A DNA stretch of 8,343 bases from Desulfobacula sp. GTDB taxonomy: Bacteria; Desulfobacterota; Desulfobacteria; Desulfobacterales; Desulfobacteraceae. The translations under genes and the position numbers were made by a program. A model generated the notes under the pieces. That model searched no databases, was not told where the DNA came from, and saw only the letters and a list, made by a program, of their open reading frames with translations. Where the stretch lies: NCBI GenBank assembly GCA_027858355.1, contig JAQICW010000175.1:1-8343 (forward strand), in the 5' to 3' direction. Below, in pieces: positions 1,609-8,343 of the stretch (positions within the stretch are counted from its first letter, which is position 1; each line of letters begins with the position of its first letter).

Positions 1609-1636
1609 TTGACATTATTTTCCCAATGATTATTCT
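1609..1636 (+). promoter_or_regulatory. Candidate sigma-70-type promoter for the GAF protein-hgcAB gene set
   Basis: A perfect -35 hexamer TTGACA (1609-1614) is followed after 16 bases by TATTCT (1631-1636, four of six matches to TATAAT). Transcription would begin about 1643, giving a leader of roughly 20 bases containing the AAGGAG ribosome site. The position also argues against the upstream ATG at 1626, which lies inside the promoter. Confidence 0.5.
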
Positions 1637-1650
1637 GGATTCATTAATTA

Positions 1651-1656
1651 AAGGAG
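1651..1656 (+). promoter_or_regulatory. Ribosome binding site that fixes the GAF-protein start at 1665
   Basis: AAGGAG lies 8 bases before ATG 1665. The alternative in-frame ATG at 1626, 13 codons upstream, has no SD and sits between the candidate -35 and -10 boxes, so 1665 is preferred. Confidence 0.75.
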
Positions 1657-1664
1657 TCTTCATA

Positions 1665-4034
1665 ATGAAAAATAGTATCGCACCCCCATCTTTCAGGGTA
1701 GATTCCATCAGGTCTGTCGTCAGTCTTGACCCGCTGCTGGCCTTTTGGGAAAAAAATCTGGTGCCAAAATATTCCCACATGGCATCAATGTTCTTGGAAC
1801 TGAAAAGCAAAATCAGTCAGATCCCGGAAATAATAGGTCCTATCAAGGATATTAAAGTCTTAATTAAATATCATGATATCATGATCCCTTTGATGAGTGC
1901 CATATTTCCTCCGGCATCCTTTAGCACTGACATCATGGGAGCCTTTACTCCCTGTACATCTGAGCCTTTTTTTGTGACCCCGGAATTCCAACGACTGCTT
2001 CTCGGCAATAACAATTTTATCAAAGAAGACCTCAAGGAAATCGTTGAAGCAGAGAAATCAAAAAAACTGGTGGATATATATTCTTTAGTGCTGGAACGAA
2101 TTTATGATTTTAACTGCCAGCGGTTCGATACTATGAATATAAAAAAAATACCGCAAGAAAAAACCGGTCTGGACCGTTACTATAGTTTCACCCCTGATTT
2201 TCAATTTGTCCAGATAAAGTCACTTGATTCACCAAAAAAACTTTCAGAAGATGACAAAGCTATGATCAGCAATCATATTTCTGACATTGACGTTTTAAGC
2301 AGGTACATTGATTTAAATAAATTTGAATTCACGGGATTTACCATTGTGCGGGCCATGGATATCACCGAGTCTGAGGTTATTTCAGCCTTTAAAAGGGATC
2401 TGATTGAGCAGCATTCCATTTTTTCTTCAGATGGAATAAAACTTTTGGAATCACGACTTCAGGCTATTTTCCGGCGGCCGGACCTATCCATAGGTATTGG
2501 AGCGCTTCAAGGAGATCAGGTCATGATCCTTAAAAATGACTGTGCCTCCAAGATCAACTGTCTGTTTGCCAATTCCCATCACATTAACCTTGAAGATCTC
2601 CGGGGATCGGTCTGGATGCAGGTAGTGGAAAAGGGATCTGTATTGCATGTGCCAGACCTTGCTAAAAAACCGGACCTGGTTCCTGCAGAACAGCAGGCAG
2701 TGGAGGCCGGTATCAGATCCATGCTTTTATCTCCTTTGTACTTTCAGGGAGAAATCATCGGGCTTATGGAAATGTTTACCCGGACTCCAAATGCCCTGAG
2801 CACCATCAACACCATTCTACTGGAAAAGATCACCCCTTTATTTTCGCTGGCCTTAAAAAGAGGGCAGGACCAACTGCAAAAACAGGTCCAATCAATTATC
2901 AAGGAAAAATGCACGGCCGTTCACCCCTCTGCGGAATGGCGTTTTGAAAAGGCTGCCATTGCCCATATGGAACGAATCCATAATGGCAACCTTAACTCAG
3001 AAATGGAATCCATTGTCTTTAAGGATGTGGTTCCTTTTTATGGACAATCCGATATCAGGGGATCTTCTCTGGCCCGAAACAAAGGGATCCAGCAGGATCT
3101 AACCCAGCAGTTGACCCTGGCCATGGATGTACTGGAAGCAGGTTCAAAACAAAGGCCCTTGCCGTTGTTACATGAATTCAAATACCGAATTAAAACCCTG
3201 ATTCAAGGCATCTCATCCGGGATATCCTCTGGTGACGAAAATGCCGTGTTTTCACTTCTAAATAATGAAGTGGTGCCTTTTTTTAATGATCTCACAGGAC
3301 TTGGGTCTGAGGTTTCAAAACGGATCGAGATCTATAACTCTGCCCTGGATCCATCCACAGACATGGTTTATAATAAAAGAAAAGATTATGAAAATAGTGT
3401 ATCCAGATTAAACAAAGCCCTGTCCAGCTATATAGATCAGGAGGATGAGTTGATCCAGCAGACCTTTCCCCACTATTTTGAAAAACGCCAGACAGACGGG
3501 ATAGATTATATGATGTATATCGGTGCTTCCATGATGGAACACCAAAAGCTTGCCAAGTTACATATCAAGGATTTAACGCTCTGGCAGCTGATGCTTGCCT
3601 GTGGCCTGGCCTTGCGCACGGAACAGGTTAAGCCGGAATTAAAAATCCCCCTGGACACATGCCACCTCATCCTGATCAACCATACTCCGCTTTCAATCCG
3701 ATTCAGATTTGACGAAAAACGATTTGATGTGGATGGTGCCTATGATGTCCGCCATGAAATCATAAAATCTCGCCTGGACAAGGCATTGATCAAAGGATCA
3801 GGGGAAAGACTTACCCAGCCCGGTCGGATTGCCGTGGTCTATTCCAACCCATCCGAAGGCGAGGCAATCCAGCAACATATTAATTTTCTCATAAGCATTG
3901 GCAAACTCAATGACGACCTTGAAATTATGAATCTGGAGGATATGCCGGATGTCCGAGGGTTGAAAGCCCTGAGGATTGGTGTGAACCTGAAATCTGCGGC
4001 CGGTAATAATATCATCAACATGAAAACAGGATAA
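1665..4034 (+). CDS. Large GAF-domain protein of unknown function, encoded directly upstream of hgcAB
   Basis: From the start set by AAGGAG this is a soluble 789-residue protein with no signal peptide or clear membrane helix. Residues ~255-400 look like a GAF small-molecule-binding domain: a helix, then IGIGAL...MILKND, the GSVLHVPDL strand-turn, and SMLLSPLYFQGEIIGLMEMFT, the usual closing strands. Next comes a region with VPFYGQSDIRGSSLARN (~456-472). The last ~180 residues include PLSIRFRFDEKRFDVDGAYDVR (split here by position: ~675-696) and ERLTQPGRIAVVYS. From memory this order resembles a large uncharacterised GAF family common in Bacteroidetes; I could not check this. There is no histidine kinase, GGDEF, HTH or sigma-54 output domain, so calling it a regulator would be a guess. 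hgcA begins 76 bases downstream on the same strand with no terminator between, so co-transcription with hgcAB is likely. A ligand-sensing or accessory role in mercury or corrinoid metabolism is inference only. Confidence 0.8.
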   Translation: MKNSIAPPSFRVDSIRSVVSLDPLLAFWEKNLVPKYSHMASMFLELKSKISQIPEIIGPIKDIKVLIKYHDIMIPLMSAIFPPASFSTDIMGAFTPCTSEPFFVTPEFQRLLLGNNNFIKEDLKEIVEAEKSKKLVDIYSLVLERIYDFNCQRFDTMNIKKIPQEKTGLDRYYSFTPDFQFVQIKSLDSPKKLSEDDKAMISNHISDIDVLSRYIDLNKFEFTGFTIVRAMDITESEVISAFKRDLIEQHSIFSSDGIKLLESRLQAIFRRPDLSIGIGALQGDQVMILKNDCASKINCLFANSHHINLEDLRGSVWMQVVEKGSVLHVPDLAKKPDLVPAEQQAVEAGIRSMLLSPLYFQGEIIGLMEMFTRTPNALSTINTILLEKITPLFSLALKRGQDQLQKQVQSIIKEKCTAVHPSAEWRFEKAAIAHMERIHNGNLNSEMESIVFKDVVPFYGQSDIRGSSLARNKGIQQDLTQQLTLAMDVLEAGSKQRPLPLLHEFKYRIKTLIQGISSGISSGDENAVFSLLNNEVVPFFNDLTGLGSEVSKRIEIYNSALDPSTDMVYNKRKDYENSVSRLNKALSSYIDQEDELIQQTFPHYFEKRQTDGIDYMMYIGASMMEHQKLAKLHIKDLTLWQLMLACGLALRTEQVKPELKIPLDTCHLILINHTPLSIRFRFDEKRFDVDGAYDVRHEIIKSRLDKALIKGSGERLTQPGRIAVVYSNPSEGEAIQQHINFLISIGKLNDDLEIMNLEDMPDVRGLKALRIGVNLKSAAGNNIINMKTG

Positions 4035-4110
4035 CTTACTTCTGCATGGATAAAACCGTTTTAAATCAATTTAAGCAATATATCCAGAATTTATAGGGAT
4101 GGAAAAACAA

Positions 4111-5256
4111 ATGGATAAAATCTCAACCTCTGGCGTAGATATCATGTCCTCAATGGATGAAATCGCTTTAAGCTGTTCTGCTGAACATTCCAACCCCATG
4201 GCAGACTACGAAAAACCAGGTTACAAAATGTGTTCTTATGTGGACAAGTTTATGAAAACCGATGCCGGGGTTATTCCCATCATCAAATCAAAGCTTGAAA
4301 AAGATGACCTTTTTTCAACATTTCATGTCAGATGCGGTATCAAGCGAAATAAATACAAGGTGGCTCCCGGGCTTTATGGCATTGGGAACCCAGATAAAAA
4401 TTGTGAGGTGCTTGTTACTGCAAACTTTAAATTGACCTTTGATCATTTGAGAAAGGATCTTAAGGGCATCAATGCATGGATTCTTGTACTTGATACAAAA
4501 GGGATCAATGTTTGGTGTGCAGCAGGCAAGGGAACCTTTTCAACCCTGGAACTTGTGAACAGAATTAAAGCGTGCAAACTTGAAAAGATAGTGGATCACA
4601 AACGGATCATTGTTCCTCAGTTGGGAGCAACGGGTGTATCAGCAGGGGATGTTAAAAAACTATCTGGATTCAGGGTGGTATATGGCCCGATACGTGCAAA
4701 TGATATCCCTGCCTTTTTAAAGAAAAAAAGAAAGGCGGATAAAAACATGAGACAGGTTACCTTTAACTTATATGAACGGTTTATCCTGACACCTGTGGAA
4801 ATTCAAATTGTGTTAAAACCAGCACTGATAGCAGCACTTGTCCTGTTCATCGTTTCAGGTTTTGGACCGGGTATTTTTTCTTTTTCCATGGCCTGGGAAA
4901 GAGGCGTGATATCTTTTTTTGCCCTTATTGCAGGAATAGTTTCAGGGGGATTTGTTACCCCCGTGCTCCTCCCCTTTATCCCATCCAGACAATTTGCTCT
5001 CAAAGGAATCATTGCCGGAAGTGTATTTTCCATCCCCCTTTTGGCCCTGATTTCCACTTCTATTTTAGGGGTAGCAGGATTCCTGGCGCTTTTTTTATTC
5101 AGTGTAACCATCAGCTCTTATCTGGCCATGAATTTTACAGGGGCAACACCGTTTACCTCGCCCTCAGGGGTTGAAAAAGAAATGAAATGTTACATTCCCG
5201 TGCAATTGGTTTGCCTTGTGATTTCATCCGGGCTTTGGATATATTCTGCGTTTTAA
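4111..5256 (+). CDS. hgcA: HgcA, corrinoid-dependent mercury methyltransferase (membrane protein)
   Basis: HgcA carries a methyl group on a corrinoid cofactor and transfers it to Hg(II), forming methylmercury. The diagnostic motif N-V-W-C-A-A-G-K is present at residues 133-140; Cys136 corresponds to the cap-helix cysteine (Cys93 in the characterised Desulfovibrio protein) that ligates cobalt. The corrinoid-binding domain spans ~35-220, with PGLYGIGNP, VLVTANFKLTFD and AWILVLDTKGINVW. Five predicted membrane helices follow at about 237-254, 265-288, 299-315, 318-339 and 362-379, as expected for the family. The conserved MNFTG lies just after the fourth helix, and SPSGVEKEM follows. At 381 residues it is longer than the ~338 I recall for ND132, mainly at the N terminus. 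ATG 4111 is chosen because GGA (4101-4103) precedes it by 7 bases; in-frame ATG 4099 abuts its own AGGG too closely but would give 385 residues. hgcB follows after 22 bases and supplies the ferredoxin partner. Confidence 0.95.
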   Translation: MDKISTSGVDIMSSMDEIALSCSAEHSNPMADYEKPGYKMCSYVDKFMKTDAGVIPIIKSKLEKDDLFSTFHVRCGIKRNKYKVAPGLYGIGNPDKNCEVLVTANFKLTFDHLRKDLKGINAWILVLDTKGINVWCAAGKGTFSTLELVNRIKACKLEKIVDHKRIIVPQLGATGVSAGDVKKLSGFRVVYGPIRANDIPAFLKKKRKADKNMRQVTFNLYERFILTPVEIQIVLKPALIAALVLFIVSGFGPGIFSFSMAWERGVISFFALIAGIVSGGFVTPVLLPFIPSRQFALKGIIAGSVFSIPLLALISTSILGVAGFLALFLFSVTISSYLAMNFTGATPFTSPSGVEKEMKCYIPVQLVCLVISSGLWIYSAF

Positions 5257-5278: not shown

Positions 5279-5569
5279 ATGAAAGATTTAAGATATTTAG
5301 ATGATGTATCAACCCTGGTACTTGATAAAGAAAAATGTATCGGCTGCAGCTTGTGTACAGAGGTCTGCCCCCAGGCTGTTTTTGAAATGAGAGATAATAA
5401 AGCCGATATTGTTGATTTCAATGCCTGCATGGAATGTGGCGCATGTGTCAACAACTGCCCTTCAAAGGCTATATCTGTGAGTCCCGGTGTTGGCTGAGCT
5501 GCCTATATTATCCAGGTCTGGATAAAGGGTAAAGAAAACGCCTCCTGCGGCAGCGGCGAGTGCTGCTGA
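5279..5569 (+). CDS. hgcB: HgcB, two-[4Fe-4S] ferredoxin of mercury methylation, predicted selenoprotein (Sec73)
   Basis: HgcB is the ferredoxin partner of HgcA; it is thought to reduce the corrinoid and to bind and pass on Hg(II). Two cluster motifs are visible: C20-x2-C23-x2-C26-x3-C30-P and C50-x2-C53-x2-C56-x3-C60-P. After ISVSPGVG the frame meets TGA (5495-5497) at codon 73, where the family has a strictly conserved, functionally essential cysteine (GVGC-AA). Read as selenocysteine, the protein continues AAYIIQVWIKGKENAS, then CGSGECC, and stops at TGA 5567-5569. This gives 96 residues with the terminal Cys-Cys pair (C95, C96); ND132 HgcB is 95 residues with Cys94-Cys95, as I recall. A SECIS-like hairpin lies directly after the TGA. 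Translation starts at ATG 5279 with GGAAGGA (5266-5272) 6 bases upstream, 22 bases after hgcA, so the pair is an operon. Conventional gene calling would report a truncated 72-residue product lacking Cys73 and the tail. A nonsense mutation is the alternative, but the intact tail and SECIS argue against it. Confidence 0.9.
5495..5497 (+). other. In-frame TGA read as selenocysteine (codon 73 of hgcB)
   Basis: The TGA replaces the TGC/TGT codon of the conserved HgcB Cys73 by what would be a single change at the third base. It lies between G70-V71-G72 and A74-A75-Y76-I77-I78, sequence typical of HgcB on both sides. The downstream frame stays open for 23 codons after TGA and ends in a Cys-Cys pair, as the family does. 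Confidence 0.85.
5501..5530 (+). promoter_or_regulatory. Bacterial SECIS element within the hgcB coding sequence
   Basis: TTATCC (5508-5513) pairs perfectly with GGATAA (5520-5525), closing the hexaloop AGGTCT (5514-5519), in which A and T can also pair. Below an asymmetric internal loop (5504-5507 against A5526), C5502-C5503 can pair with G5527-G5528. The apical loop AGGUCU is the one I recall from the E. coli fdhF SECIS, where its guanines are contacted by SelB. The first loop G is 18 bases after the UGA, against 19 in fdhF as I recall it. The element would recruit SelB with Sec-tRNA to decode UGA 5495-5497. Confidence 0.85.
5548..5568 (+). other. GC-rich hairpin overlapping the end of hgcB
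   Basis: GCAGC (5550-5554) pairs with GCTGC (5562-5566), extended by G5549-T5567 and C5548-G5568, around a 7-base loop. No T-run follows, so I do not call it a terminator. No other convincing terminator is seen in the 58 bases (5570-5627) between the convergent hgcB and cyclase genes. The hairpin may simply reflect the Cys-Gly-Ser-Gly-Glu-Cys-Cys codons. Confidence 0.25.
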
Positions 5570-5627: not shown

Positions 5628-6854
5628 TCATTCAGGCAATAGATTAGATTTTTTTTCCTCAGAAGATTTATCACTTTGAATTAATTTTGGCCGATTTTCA
5701 AATGTCAACTCAATCCTTGTAGGACTGATATTTACAACATCAATCCTGTCATTGGGCAGGGTTAAATTTCCTGTATTAATACTATAAAAAGTCGTGCCAA
5801 GTCGTGCCGAAAACAGATCAATAGAAGTAAGGACATTGTTTTTATTTAACAGACTGACATCTTTTCTAAGCCCTCGGAAGGTAATGGAAATTTTAGGGTC
5901 CTTTGGCTGGGATACCATAAGTTCTGTTGGAATATTTTTAAAATTAAGGGGCAGATCGATTTTTTTTTCAAAATTCTGTTGCCCTGCAAGGACCATCCAC
6001 AGAATAAAAACCAATGTAAAAACAGCTGCCTTTATTTTATACCGCCTGGTAAACCAGGATTTAATTTTTTCTTTAATACTTGTATGCACCTCTTTTTGAA
6101 CAAGTATAACATCCTCAATAATCATGGACAATTCTTTTTGATCTTTTACCTTTTGGAGTTCCTGGTCCCCGACAAATGATATTTCCCCTCTTTCCTCTGA
6201 AATAATCATTACCCAGGCATCGCATTGTTCAGTCAACCCCAGGGCTGCCCTATGCCTTGTTCCCCATTCCTGGGGAAGATCCTCCCTTGCAGACAAGGGC
6301 AGATAGCAGGATGTTTTTAAGATTTTCCCCTTGGAAATAAGGACAGCACCATCATGCAGAGGTGATTCTTTATAAAAAATGGAATTCAATATTTCAGGCT
6401 GGGGATCACATTCCATAGAAATCCCTTTGGTGATCAAATCAAACACCAGGTCTGTTCTTTCAAAAATAATGAGTGCGCCAATTTTTTTTGCTGCGGCATC
6501 AAAGGCCCAGTCGGCAAACTCAGCTATCCAGGTATCCTTAGCAGAACCATGTTTCAATCCAAAGGTTTTCAGAGGATTAAACCGCTCAAGCATCTGCCTG
6601 ATTTCTTTTTGAAACAGTATAATCAAAAGGATAACAAAAACCTGCCATAAAATCTGAAATACCCAGGTGGTCAAAAAAAGACCTCCGGCTTTGGCAACAA
6701 TAAAAATCCCGCTTAAAAGGACAATACCAATCAGAGCTTTAAAGGCTTTGGTGCCCCAGAACCATATATAAAGCTGATAGGAAACCATAGATATAAACAA
6801 AATATCAAGAACATCCGGCAACCCGATATTCGACAATATGGCAAGCAAATTCAT
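5628..6854 (-). CDS. cdaA: Membrane diadenylate cyclase (CdaA/DacA type) fused to a C-terminal YbbR-like domain
   Basis: This enzyme makes cyclic di-AMP from two ATP at the cytoplasmic face of the inner membrane. Three N-terminal membrane helices (~12-33, 40-60, 64-82) precede a DAC domain (~105-235) with the catalytic signatures H167-D168-G169-A170 (SPLHDGAVL) and G198-T-R-H-R202 (GTRHRAALGL), both intact. A further helix (~274-291) then leads to an extracytoplasmic domain (~297-387) with YbbR-like character: IDLPLNFKNIP...ISITFRGLR...INTGNLTLP...ISPTRIELTFE. In Firmicutes, CdaA (~273 residues) and the YbbR-repeat regulator CdaR are separate neighbouring genes; here one polypeptide of 408 residues appears to join the cyclase with one YbbR-type unit. 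The start at 6854 has a modest upstream GAGAAAGTAGGA on the minus strand. The gene converges on hgcB with a 58-base gap and diverges from the oxidoreductase gene, so it is transcribed separately from both. It stops at TGA, taken as a true stop because no SECIS-like loop follows. Confidence 0.9.
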   Translation of the reverse strand: MNLLAILSNIGLPDVLDILFISMVSYQLYIWFWGTKAFKALIGIVLLSGIFIVAKAGGLFLTTWVFQILWQVFVILLIILFQKEIRQMLERFNPLKTFGLKHGSAKDTWIAEFADWAFDAAAKKIGALIIFERTDLVFDLITKGISMECDPQPEILNSIFYKESPLHDGAVLISKGKILKTSCYLPLSAREDLPQEWGTRHRAALGLTEQCDAWVMIISEERGEISFVGDQELQKVKDQKELSMIIEDVILVQKEVHTSIKEKIKSWFTRRYKIKAAVFTLVFILWMVLAGQQNFEKKIDLPLNFKNIPTELMVSQPKDPKISITFRGLRKDVSLLNKNNVLTSIDLFSARLGTTFYSINTGNLTLPNDRIDVVNISPTRIELTFENRPKLIQSDKSSEEKKSNLLPE

Positions 6855-7108: not shown

Positions 7109-8343
7109 ATGTACGGATGGACCGGCAATATACTGCATTTAGATCTGACAAAAAAAAATATTGAGATTGAAAAACCCCGTCTTGATATCTTAAACCAATA
7201 TGTCGGTGGCAAAGGATTTGGCGGGCGTTATTTGAGGGAGTGCGCAACCCTGCCCTGGGACCACCCCGACATGGTGATCTGTATATTTGCAGGTCCTTTT
7301 GCGGCAAGCATCTCCCCTACATCAGGGCGGGCTCATATTCTTTCAAAATCCCCACTCACAGGGCTTGTGGGAGATTCATCCGTTGGCGGAAAGCTTGCCA
7401 CCCGGCTGAAAAGGGCTGGCTGGGACGGTATTGTCATCACAGGCAAAAGCAAGACACCTGTTGGCATTACCATAAAGGATAATCTTGTAGAGTTTAAAGA
7501 TGTCAAAGGATTATGGGGGCTTGATACAGATACTGTCCACAAACAGATCAGACCGGGGAATGCATCTTTAGCATGCATTGGCCCTGCTGCTGAAAATGGT
7601 GTCCGATATGCCAGTATAATTGTGGACCGCTATTTTGCTGCCGGCAGAAGCGGGCTAGGACTTTGTCTTGCCAAAAAAAAAATCAAATATCTCCTGATAG
7701 ACGGCACAGGCCATTGTAAAGTACAAAACCCTAAAAAGCTTAAAGAAGCAAGGGAAGACATCTTAAGACTTACAGCTGCCTCCCCGGCACTGATGGGCCA
7801 GTTCGGCTTTACCTGCCTTGGTACTGGGGCCGTATATGATCTCATGGACAACCGCCGGATGATGCCCACAGATAATTTTCAACGTACCCGTTTTGAACCT
7901 GCATCAAAACTCAATGCAGCCGCCTATACAAAAAGTTATTCAACCAAAAAACACGGGTGTCTTGGCTGTCATATCCTCTGCAAAAAAATAGGGACAAAAA
8001 ACAAAACATCCATTGCCATGCCGGAGTTTGAGACCATGTCCCATTTTACAGCTTTAATCGGTTGCATGGATACCGAGCTTGTCGTAAAAGCCAATGAACT
8101 ATGCAATCATCTTGGGATGGATACCATATCAGCTGCTTCTACCCTGGCTTGCAGACGTGAAATAACCGGGCTTAATTATACTTCAGACACAGTTTTATCA
8201 CTTTTAAAGGATATTGCGTTTGGAAAAGGTGAAGGAAAACTCCTTGCCCTGGGGGCAAAACTATATGCAAAAAAAATGGGCAACCCTCAGGCTGCCATGG
8301 CTGTCAAAGGGATGGAACTTCCGGCCTATGATCCCAGAGGAGC
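7109..8343 (+). CDS. Aldehyde:ferredoxin oxidoreductase family protein (tungsten-bispyranopterin), 3' end missing
   Basis: Family members oxidise aldehydes to acids with ferredoxin as electron acceptor, using a tungsten-bispyranopterin and one [4Fe-4S] cluster, in the cytoplasm. The first 411 residues of an expected ~600 are present and open at the right edge. MYGWTGNILHLDLT, GGKGFGGRYL, FAGPFAASISPTSGR and SKSPLTG match the N-terminal AOR domain. C284-x2-C287-x3-C291 supplies three cluster ligands, aligning with Cys288/291/295 of the Pyrococcus enzyme; the fourth lies outside the window. PEFETMSH and ANELCNHLGMDTIS follow, and E403-LPAYDPRG-411 is the conserved pterin-binding segment. Some positions differ from the usual pattern: AAGRSGLGLCLAKKKIK stands where most enzymes have AAGRGGLGAVMGSKNLK, and HFTALIGCMD replaces the common LLGxNLGI. 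It may therefore be a divergent subfamily with an unknown substrate. The start codon lacks a good SD; ATG 7091 is in frame but blocked by TGA at 7100-7102. No ferredoxin or moaD-like partner is visible. Confidence 0.92.
   Translation, partial: MYGWTGNILHLDLTKKNIEIEKPRLDILNQYVGGKGFGGRYLRECATLPWDHPDMVICIFAGPFAASISPTSGRAHILSKSPLTGLVGDSSVGGKLATRLKRAGWDGIVITGKSKTPVGITIKDNLVEFKDVKGLWGLDTDTVHKQIRPGNASLACIGPAAENGVRYASIIVDRYFAAGRSGLGLCLAKKKIKYLLIDGTGHCKVQNPKKLKEAREDILRLTAASPALMGQFGFTCLGTGAVYDLMDNRRMMPTDNFQRTRFEPASKLNAAAYTKSYSTKKHGCLGCHILCKKIGTKNKTSIAMPEFETMSHFTALIGCMDTELVVKANELCNHLGMDTISAASTLACRREITGLNYTSDTVLSLLKDIAFGKGEGKLLALGAKLYAKKMGNPQAAMAVKGMELPAYDPRG

What the first reader, a model, noticed from the sequence alone, without database searches (positions are those of the whole stretch)
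5279..5569. HgcB appears to be a selenoprotein: UGA replaces the essential Cys73
Seen: the hgcB frame has TGA at codon 73, followed by 23 further open codons that read AAYII... and end in Cys-Cys, then a second TGA. Total length becomes 96 residues. Established: HgcB of Desulfovibrio ND132 has a conserved Cys73 needed for methylation, and a C-terminal Cys pair of which at least one is needed (site-directed mutagenesis work, as I recall). The position match is exact. Inference: Sec73 would put a selenolate, a far stronger mercury ligand than thiolate, at the site thought to bind or hand over Hg(II), possibly changing rate, affinity or redox behaviour of methylation. I do not know of a described Sec-containing HgcB. 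Automated annotation would miss it, reporting a 72-residue truncated ferredoxin, so other Sec-HgcB genes may be hidden in databases.
Basis: partly seen in the sequence, partly recalled or inferred. Interest (0 to 1): 0.95.

Follow-up and report, generated by a model that had tools for sequence, protein, structure and literature searches.

The report
Selenocysteine form of mercury-methylation ferredoxin HgcB
In this bacterial gene for the mercury-methylation ferredoxin HgcB, a stop-type codon sits exactly where an essential cysteine normally is, and it is very likely read as the selenium amino acid selenocysteine; selenium forms of HgcB were already reported in 2023, so this is a well-supported new member of a known kind.

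Summary
The hgcB frame (5279-5569) has TGA at codon 73, then 23 open codons ending Cys-Cys. Read through, it passes NCBI's HgcB model (123 bits, cut-off 99); hgcA lies directly upstream.

The Sec reading is strongly supported. TGA sits at codon 73 in 28 of 80 public loci found by HgcA similarity, and in 59 distinct sequences (window included) after a targeted extension. All 59 can form the same 7-bp hairpin with a G-containing loop after the UGA, held by three different, fixed Ile codons. Of 39 codon columns with an invariant amino acid and synonymous choices, only these three never vary (29 sequences). Codons after the TGA are under purifying selection (pN/pS 0.10). The 51 Sec rows on the tree form one group. 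SelA, SelB and tRNA-Sec are found in most relatives' genomes; the window's own genome is not held.

The novelty claim fails: a 2026 review lists HgcB with motif GVGU, citing Haft & Gwadz 2023.

Possibly new: Sec73 in HgcB and Sec at the HgcA N-terminus never occur together here, and 42 of 51 Sec-HgcB rows lack the matching HgcA Cys-Cys. This rests on few evolutionary events.

The parts
5279..5569 (+). hgcB, read through the TGA at codon 73: 96-residue dicluster ferredoxin HgcB, stop TGA at 5567-5569
   Evidence: NF040864 123 bits over residues 5-96
5495..5497 (+). TGA codon 73, predicted Sec codon, at the place of the essential Cys73 of HgcB
   Evidence: TGA at this codon in 59 distinct sequences incl. 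the window
5508..5525 (+). predicted SECIS hairpin: 7-bp stem 5508-5514 / 5519-5525, apical loop GGUC 5515-5518, 17 nt between UGA and loop
   Evidence: folds; all 7 pairs and a loop G possible in 59 of 59 Sec sequences; Ile codons 77, 78, 82 fixed as ATT, ATC, ATA
5336..5461 (+). two CxxCxxCxxxCP motifs (residues 20-31 and 50-61) for two [4Fe-4S] clusters
   Evidence: translation; Pfam Fer4 hits
5561..5566 (+). C-terminal Cys-Cys pair (residues 95-96)
   Evidence: 55 of 59 Sec sequences end in CC
4099..5256 (+). hgcA, corrinoid protein HgcA with NVWCAAGK cap-helix Cys; N-terminal region reads SCSAE, not the CC/CU motif of most other HgcA seen here
   Evidence: NF040863 437 bits

Best explanation
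This is hgcB with an in-frame UGA at codon 73, which is predicted to be decoded as selenocysteine through a SECIS-like hairpin that begins 10 nt behind the UGA, giving a likely 96-residue HgcB with a selenolate in place of the essential Cys73 thiolate. Shown: the TGA, the open frame behind it, the conserved hairpin potential and its fixed codons, purifying selection downstream, one Sec group on the tree, and selA, selB and selC in most of the relatives tested. Inferred: SelB binds the hairpin and brings Sec-tRNA to the UGA; Sec73 sits at the start of the C-terminal helix and, in the model of Cooper et al. 2020, would accept methylmercury from the C-terminal Cys pair after methylation at the HgcA corrinoid. 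Any effect of Se on rate or affinity is untested.
For: Read-through product passes NF040864 over its full length. TGA at codon 73 in 28 of 80 HgcA-similarity loci and 59 distinct sequences in all. Hairpin with 7 of 7 pairs and a loop G possible in 59 of 59 Sec and 2 of 78 Cys sequences; the minimum-energy fold holds the exact stem in 57 of 59 Sec and 2 of 78 Cys. Of 39 amino-acid-invariant columns with synonymous codons only I77, I78 and I82 show a single codon, and the three codons differ from each other (29 sequences); the same codons in 59 of 59. The loop reads GGUN in 56 of 59, GGGC in 2, AGUU in 1. pN/pS 0.097 in ten codons after the TGA outside the hairpin (59 sequences); 55 of 59 end in CC. 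SelA over cut-off in 26 of 28 Sec-HgcB genomes, tRNA-Sec in 24 of 28, SelB in 23 of 28 (read off the rows); all three in 20 of 28.
Against: No genome is held for the window, so its own Sec machinery is unseen. One relative (G016) shows none of the three parts over cut-off and seven others lack one or two; incomplete MAGs are my untested explanation. The machinery does not single out Sec-HgcB: SelB is over cut-off in 8 of 8 Cys-HgcB genomes too, and the tRNA-Sec model passed its cut-off in 5 of 14 control genomes. Rfam finds no hit in the window. The window hairpin alone is not unusual. 8 of 59 Sec sequences fold weaker than the -7.5 kcal/mol of the published bSECIS model. A G at the first base of codon 80 is not peculiar to Sec rows: GGC is the commonest codon there in Cys rows, 14 of 78. 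No protein evidence.
Confidence: 0.95

Rival explanations
1. The TGA is a real stop and the gene makes a 72-residue truncated HgcB, either a pseudogene or a short functional ferredoxin.
For: Table 11 reads it so. Both ferredoxin cluster motifs lie before the stop.
Against: Codons after the TGA are under purifying selection (pN/pS 0.097) and 55 of 59 keep the terminal CC; fixed hairpin codons follow the TGA in 59 of 59. Cys73 to Ala abolishes methylation in ND132 (passage in PMC7305189).
Confidence: 0.02
2. The UGA is read through, but mainly as Cys or another residue instead of Sec, for example under selenium limitation.
For: Homologs have Cys at this place. Cys insertion at UGA Sec codons is recalled from other organisms, no call.
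Against: A plain Cys codon would do the same without the hairpin; hairpin codons are kept in 59 of 59. Most relatives tested carry selA, selB and selC.
Confidence: 0.02
3. Sequencing or assembly error turned TGC/TGT into TGA.
For: The window is a single record.
Against: 58 other public loci have TGA at the same codon, among them the isolate Desulfocicer vacuolatum DSM 3385 (L024).
Confidence: 0.005

Closest known systems
Sec-containing HgcB (NF040864, motif GVGU), Haft & Gwadz 2023, J Bacteriol 205:e00259-22, as listed in PMC13188914
   Same: Same protein family and same motif GVGU; the window reads PGVGU.
   Different: No difference found at the level I could see. I saw only the table row and reference in the review and the citation in PMC11588087; the 2023 paper is not held, so its species and SECIS cannot be compared.
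HgcB of Desulfovibrio desulfuricans ND132
   Same: Dicluster ferredoxin paired with HgcA, critical residue 73 and C-terminal Cys pair (passages of PMC7305189).
   Different: Cys at 73; here UGA with a hairpin behind it.
Sec-containing HgcA (motif CU), listed in PMC13188914
   Same: Other half of the same pair, with Sec next to Cys; seen here as an in-frame TGA in a CU or CSU motif at the HgcA N-terminus in 23 of 72 Cys-HgcB tree rows, 16 of them PCUGP.
   Different: Sec lies at the HgcA N-terminus and HgcB has Cys73; none of the 51 Sec-HgcB tree rows has it. That the review's CU is this same place is my inference from the motif.

Membership tests
HgcB (NF040864) | full-length profile score over the curated cut-off | tested here: met
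   123 bits vs 99, residues 5-96, read through the TGA
HgcB (NF040864) | two CxxCxxCxxxCP cluster motifs | tested here: met
   residues 20-31 and 50-61; Fer4 hits
HgcB (NF040864) | conserved Cys (or Sec) after GVG at position 73 | tested here: met
   GVG followed by the UGA codon; motif GVGU is listed for Sec-HgcB. That it is Sec in the protein is predicted
HgcB (NF040864) | C-terminal Cys residue(s) | tested here: met
   ends ...ECC
HgcB (NF040864) | hgcA next to it | tested here: met
   NF040863 437 bits vs 275 for the gene ending at 5256
bacterial selenoprotein with bSECIS | in-frame UGA aligned with a conserved Cys of homologs | tested here: met
   TGA in 59, TGC/TGT in 78 of 137 distinct rows
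bacterial selenoprotein with bSECIS | 3-9 nt apical loop, 4-16 bp upper stem, G in the first two loop positions, 16-37 nt from UGA, MFE at most -7.5 kcal/mol (model in PMC13188914) | tested here: met
   window: 4-nt GGUC loop, 7 bp, 17 nt, -11.7 kcal/mol. Over the group, 49 of 59 show the exact stem and the MFE
bacterial selenoprotein with bSECIS | SelA, SelB and tRNA-Sec in the organism | tested here: inconclusive
   own genome not held; in 28 relatives: SelA 26, tRNA-Sec 24, SelB 23; nearest relative G001 has all three
bacterial selenoprotein with bSECIS | Sec shown in the protein | not testable with these tools
   needs 75Se labelling or mass spectrometry

The most novel reading that the evidence does not exclude
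HgcA and HgcB offer two alternative seats for one selenolate in the mercury-methylation complex. A lineage puts Sec either in the N-terminal Cys-Sec motif of HgcA or at position 73 of HgcB, never both; once HgcB gained Sec73, the N-terminal Cys-Cys pair of HgcA became dispensable and decayed. This would mean that the two sites serve one hand-over step for Hg(II) or methylmercury. It would also mean that HgcB was pre-adapted for Sec, since its conserved IIQxWIK codons already encode most of both hairpin arms (33 of 78 Cys sequences pair 6 of 7).
Probability: 0.3. Interest if true: 0.65.

Novelty: new member of a known kind. Interest (0 to 1): 0.45.

Why it matters
HgcAB makes methylmercury. In this group, which includes Desulfobacula, Desulfotignum, Desulfamplus and Desulfocicer by record title, a residue essential in ND132 would depend on selenium supply. 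A survey that translates by table 11 would record such an hgcB as a 72-residue fragment, as one search does here, and lose residue 73 and the C-terminal Cys pair. The conserved hairpin gives a simple DNA test for this group's Sec-HgcB, and a cultured carrier (Desulfocicer vacuolatum DSM 3385) allows direct proof. The split between Sec-HgcA and Sec-HgcB, if it holds, points to a role of the HgcA N-terminal Cys pair; I did not search whether that pair has been studied.

Tried and rejected
Rejected: truncated gene, sequencing error and read-through without Sec (see rivals). The Rfam scan gave no hit. A plasmid search with the read-through protein found 7 records, all under 60% identity and none covering 80% of the query. 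The single-sequence fold z-score was weak, and a synonymous recoding control forms the hairpin in 2291 of 20000 draws, so I do not use the window's hairpin alone as evidence. A phylum-wide pattern search matched only the centre genome G024 among 395 genomes; the pattern was cut to this group's hairpin and would miss other SECIS forms. A small class-level search (11 genomes) added nothing. In one search one TGA row (G219) proved to be in the tail, not at codon 73. Structure prediction was not run, since a published model places Cys73.

Limits: most of L111-L142 (and L103) were looked at because one search reported a TGA in them, so the 59 do not measure frequency. In one search, 149 rows from 149 of 151 sources were cut to 137 by removing 12 duplicates; L046 and L069 are cut by contig ends and gave no row. 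The tree used 123 of the 137 rows (13 without a readable HgcA, one too short) with the quick method. HgcA N-terminal states were called by motif search with L132 and L138 set by hand. An earlier count of 54 CC tails mis-scored L019; the recount is 55 of 59.

Full report
What is there. The window carries hgcA (4099-5256) and directly after it hgcB from ATG 5279. By the standard code hgcB stops after 72 residues at TGA 5495-5497; read through, the frame goes on for 23 codons to Cys-Cys and a second TGA at 5567-5569. The read-through protein matches NCBI's HgcB model over residues 5-96 (123 bits, cut-off 99) and the upstream protein matches HgcA (437 bits, cut-off 275). Codon 73 falls on the Cys that, in ND132, abolishes methylation when changed to Ala, while loss of both C-terminal Cys cuts activity by 95% (passages of PMC7305189).

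Relatives. hgcB has TGA at codon 73 in 28 of these 80 (L001-L027 and L029); 50 show TGC/TGT, and L046 and L069 are cut by contig ends. A search of 389 genomes of the order of Desulfocicer vacuolatum with the HgcB model found 164 over cut-off. By my count of its listing, which is cut off at the weak end, 54 rows in 53 genomes held an in-frame TGA. I fetched the ones not yet held; one (G219) has its TGA in the tail, the rest at codon 73. After removal of duplicates there are 59 TGA rows, window included, and 78 Cys rows.

The hairpin. The 18 bases 5508-5525 form a 7-bp stem with loop GGUC, the loop 17 nt after the UGA. This fits the published bSECIS constraints (loop 3-9 nt, stem 4-16 bp, G in the first two loop positions, 16-37 nt, MFE at most -7.5; PMC13188914, passages); the window folds at -11.7 kcal/mol. 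Alone this is weak: z-score -0.82, and 2291 of 20000 synonymous recodings form it too. Across relatives it is strong. In 29 Sec sequences 39 columns have an invariant amino acid with a choice of codons; only three show one codon, Ile77 ATT, Ile78 ATC and Ile82 ATA, three different codons for the same amino acid, and their third bases lie in the stem. In 59 sequences the three stay fixed. All 7 pairs plus a loop G can form in 59 of 59 Sec and 2 of 78 Cys. The loop is GGUN in 56, GGGC in 2 and AGUU in 1. The exact stem is in the minimum-energy fold in 57 of 59 Sec and 2 of 78 Cys; 49 of 59 also pass the -7.5 limit.

Selection and descent. In codons 74-76 and 83-89 of the 59 Sec rows pS is 0.65 and pN 0.063; 55 of 59 end in CC. 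So synonymous sites vary widely while the protein and the three Ile codons are kept. On a tree of HgcA plus HgcB residues before codon 73 (123 rows, quick method) all 51 Sec rows are one side of a branch with SH-aLRT 100, one change. This fits one gain of Sec and no observed return to Cys, but many rows were picked for having TGA.

Machinery. In the 28 relatives' genomes of the first scan, SelA is over cut-off in 26, tRNA-Sec in 24 and SelB in 23 (read off the rows); all three in 20. G016 shows none of the three over cut-off; G003, G010, G014, G015, G019, G020 and G021 lack one or two. All but G024 are titled MAG; that incompleteness explains the gaps is my inference. As a control, SelB is over cut-off in 8 of 8 Cys-HgcB genomes of the same call, so the machinery is common in these bacteria and does not by itself mark Sec-HgcB; in the 14 well-known control genomes SelB passed in 2, tRNA-Sec in 5 and SelA in 1. 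The nearest relative G001 and the isolate G024 have all three. The window's own genome is not held.

What is known. The review PMC13188914 (passages seen) lists 'Mercury methylation ferredoxin HgcB, NF040864, GVGU, WP_250697400.1' with reference 63, Haft & Gwadz 2023, and HgcA with motif CU. PMC11588087 (passages) cites the same paper. The 2023 paper itself is not held. So Sec-HgcB is a known kind, and this is one more member. Searches of the held library for hgcB or hgcA with selenocysteine or selenoprotein listed, besides these two, only PMC4195725 and PMC3945755, seen as listings and not opened; by their titles they are about dolphins and about glyphosate.

A pattern that may be new. In 23 of 72 Cys-HgcB tree rows the HgcA N-terminus holds a TGA in a CU or CSU motif, 16 of them PCUGP (21 with a Met upstream in the stretch read, 2 without); 48 others have Cys-Cys there, and the one row with neither (L053) is cut at a contig end. 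Of 51 Sec-HgcB rows none has the HgcA Sec motif, and only 9 keep Cys-Cys; one TGA near L138 lies before the start Met and was not counted. Sec-HgcA needs 5 changes on the tree, Sec-HgcB one, so the exclusion rests on few events and no independent test was possible. Seven Sec-HgcA loci (L052, L057, L061, L062, L066, L073, L075) have an HgcB with an extra Cys (GCGCA or RCGCA) at the same place.

How it likely works. SelB with Sec-tRNA would bind the hairpin and insert Sec at UGA (inference from the known bacterial pathway). In the model of Cooper et al. the C-terminal Cys pair brings Hg(II) to the corrinoid and then hands methylmercury to residue 73; with Sec there, a selenolate would take that role. 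Whether this speeds, tightens or slows the cycle is not known.

Noticed in passing
L052, L057, L060-L063, L066, L071-L075, L077, L079 and others (N-terminus of HgcA): In-frame TGA in a CU motif (mostly PCUGP) at the HgcA N-terminus, i.e. predicted Sec-HgcA, with Cys-HgcB.
   Followed up: partly
L052, L057, L061, L062, L066, L073, L075: HgcB with an extra Cys two residues before Cys73 (GCGCA or RCGCA in place of GVGCA), all in Sec-HgcA loci.
   Followed up: no
L010, HgcB tail: A second in-frame TGA after ASC (ASCUDSGCC), where many relatives have Gly; second Sec, early stop or error.
   Followed up: no
L002, HgcB tail: Ends ...SCCIG at a TAG, with Cys-Cys codons just behind the stop; one of 4 of 59 Sec rows that do not end in CC, the others being L007, L010 and L127.
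   Followed up: no
G021 (L021 and L142): Two hgcAB loci in one genome record, both with TGA at codon 73; the HgcA of L142 keeps the PCCGPP motif.
   Followed up: partly
window 5628-6854 (-): Diadenylate cyclase CdaA (DAC 124.5 bits) with a long C-terminal part that no Pfam model matched even at E 10; by eye it resembles a YbbR/CdaR-type domain (recalled).
   Followed up: partly
window 1626-4034 (+): 802-residue GAF-domain protein of unknown role directly upstream of hgcA.
   Followed up: no
window 7109-8341 (+): Start of an aldehyde:ferredoxin oxidoreductase gene, cut by the window end.
   Followed up: no
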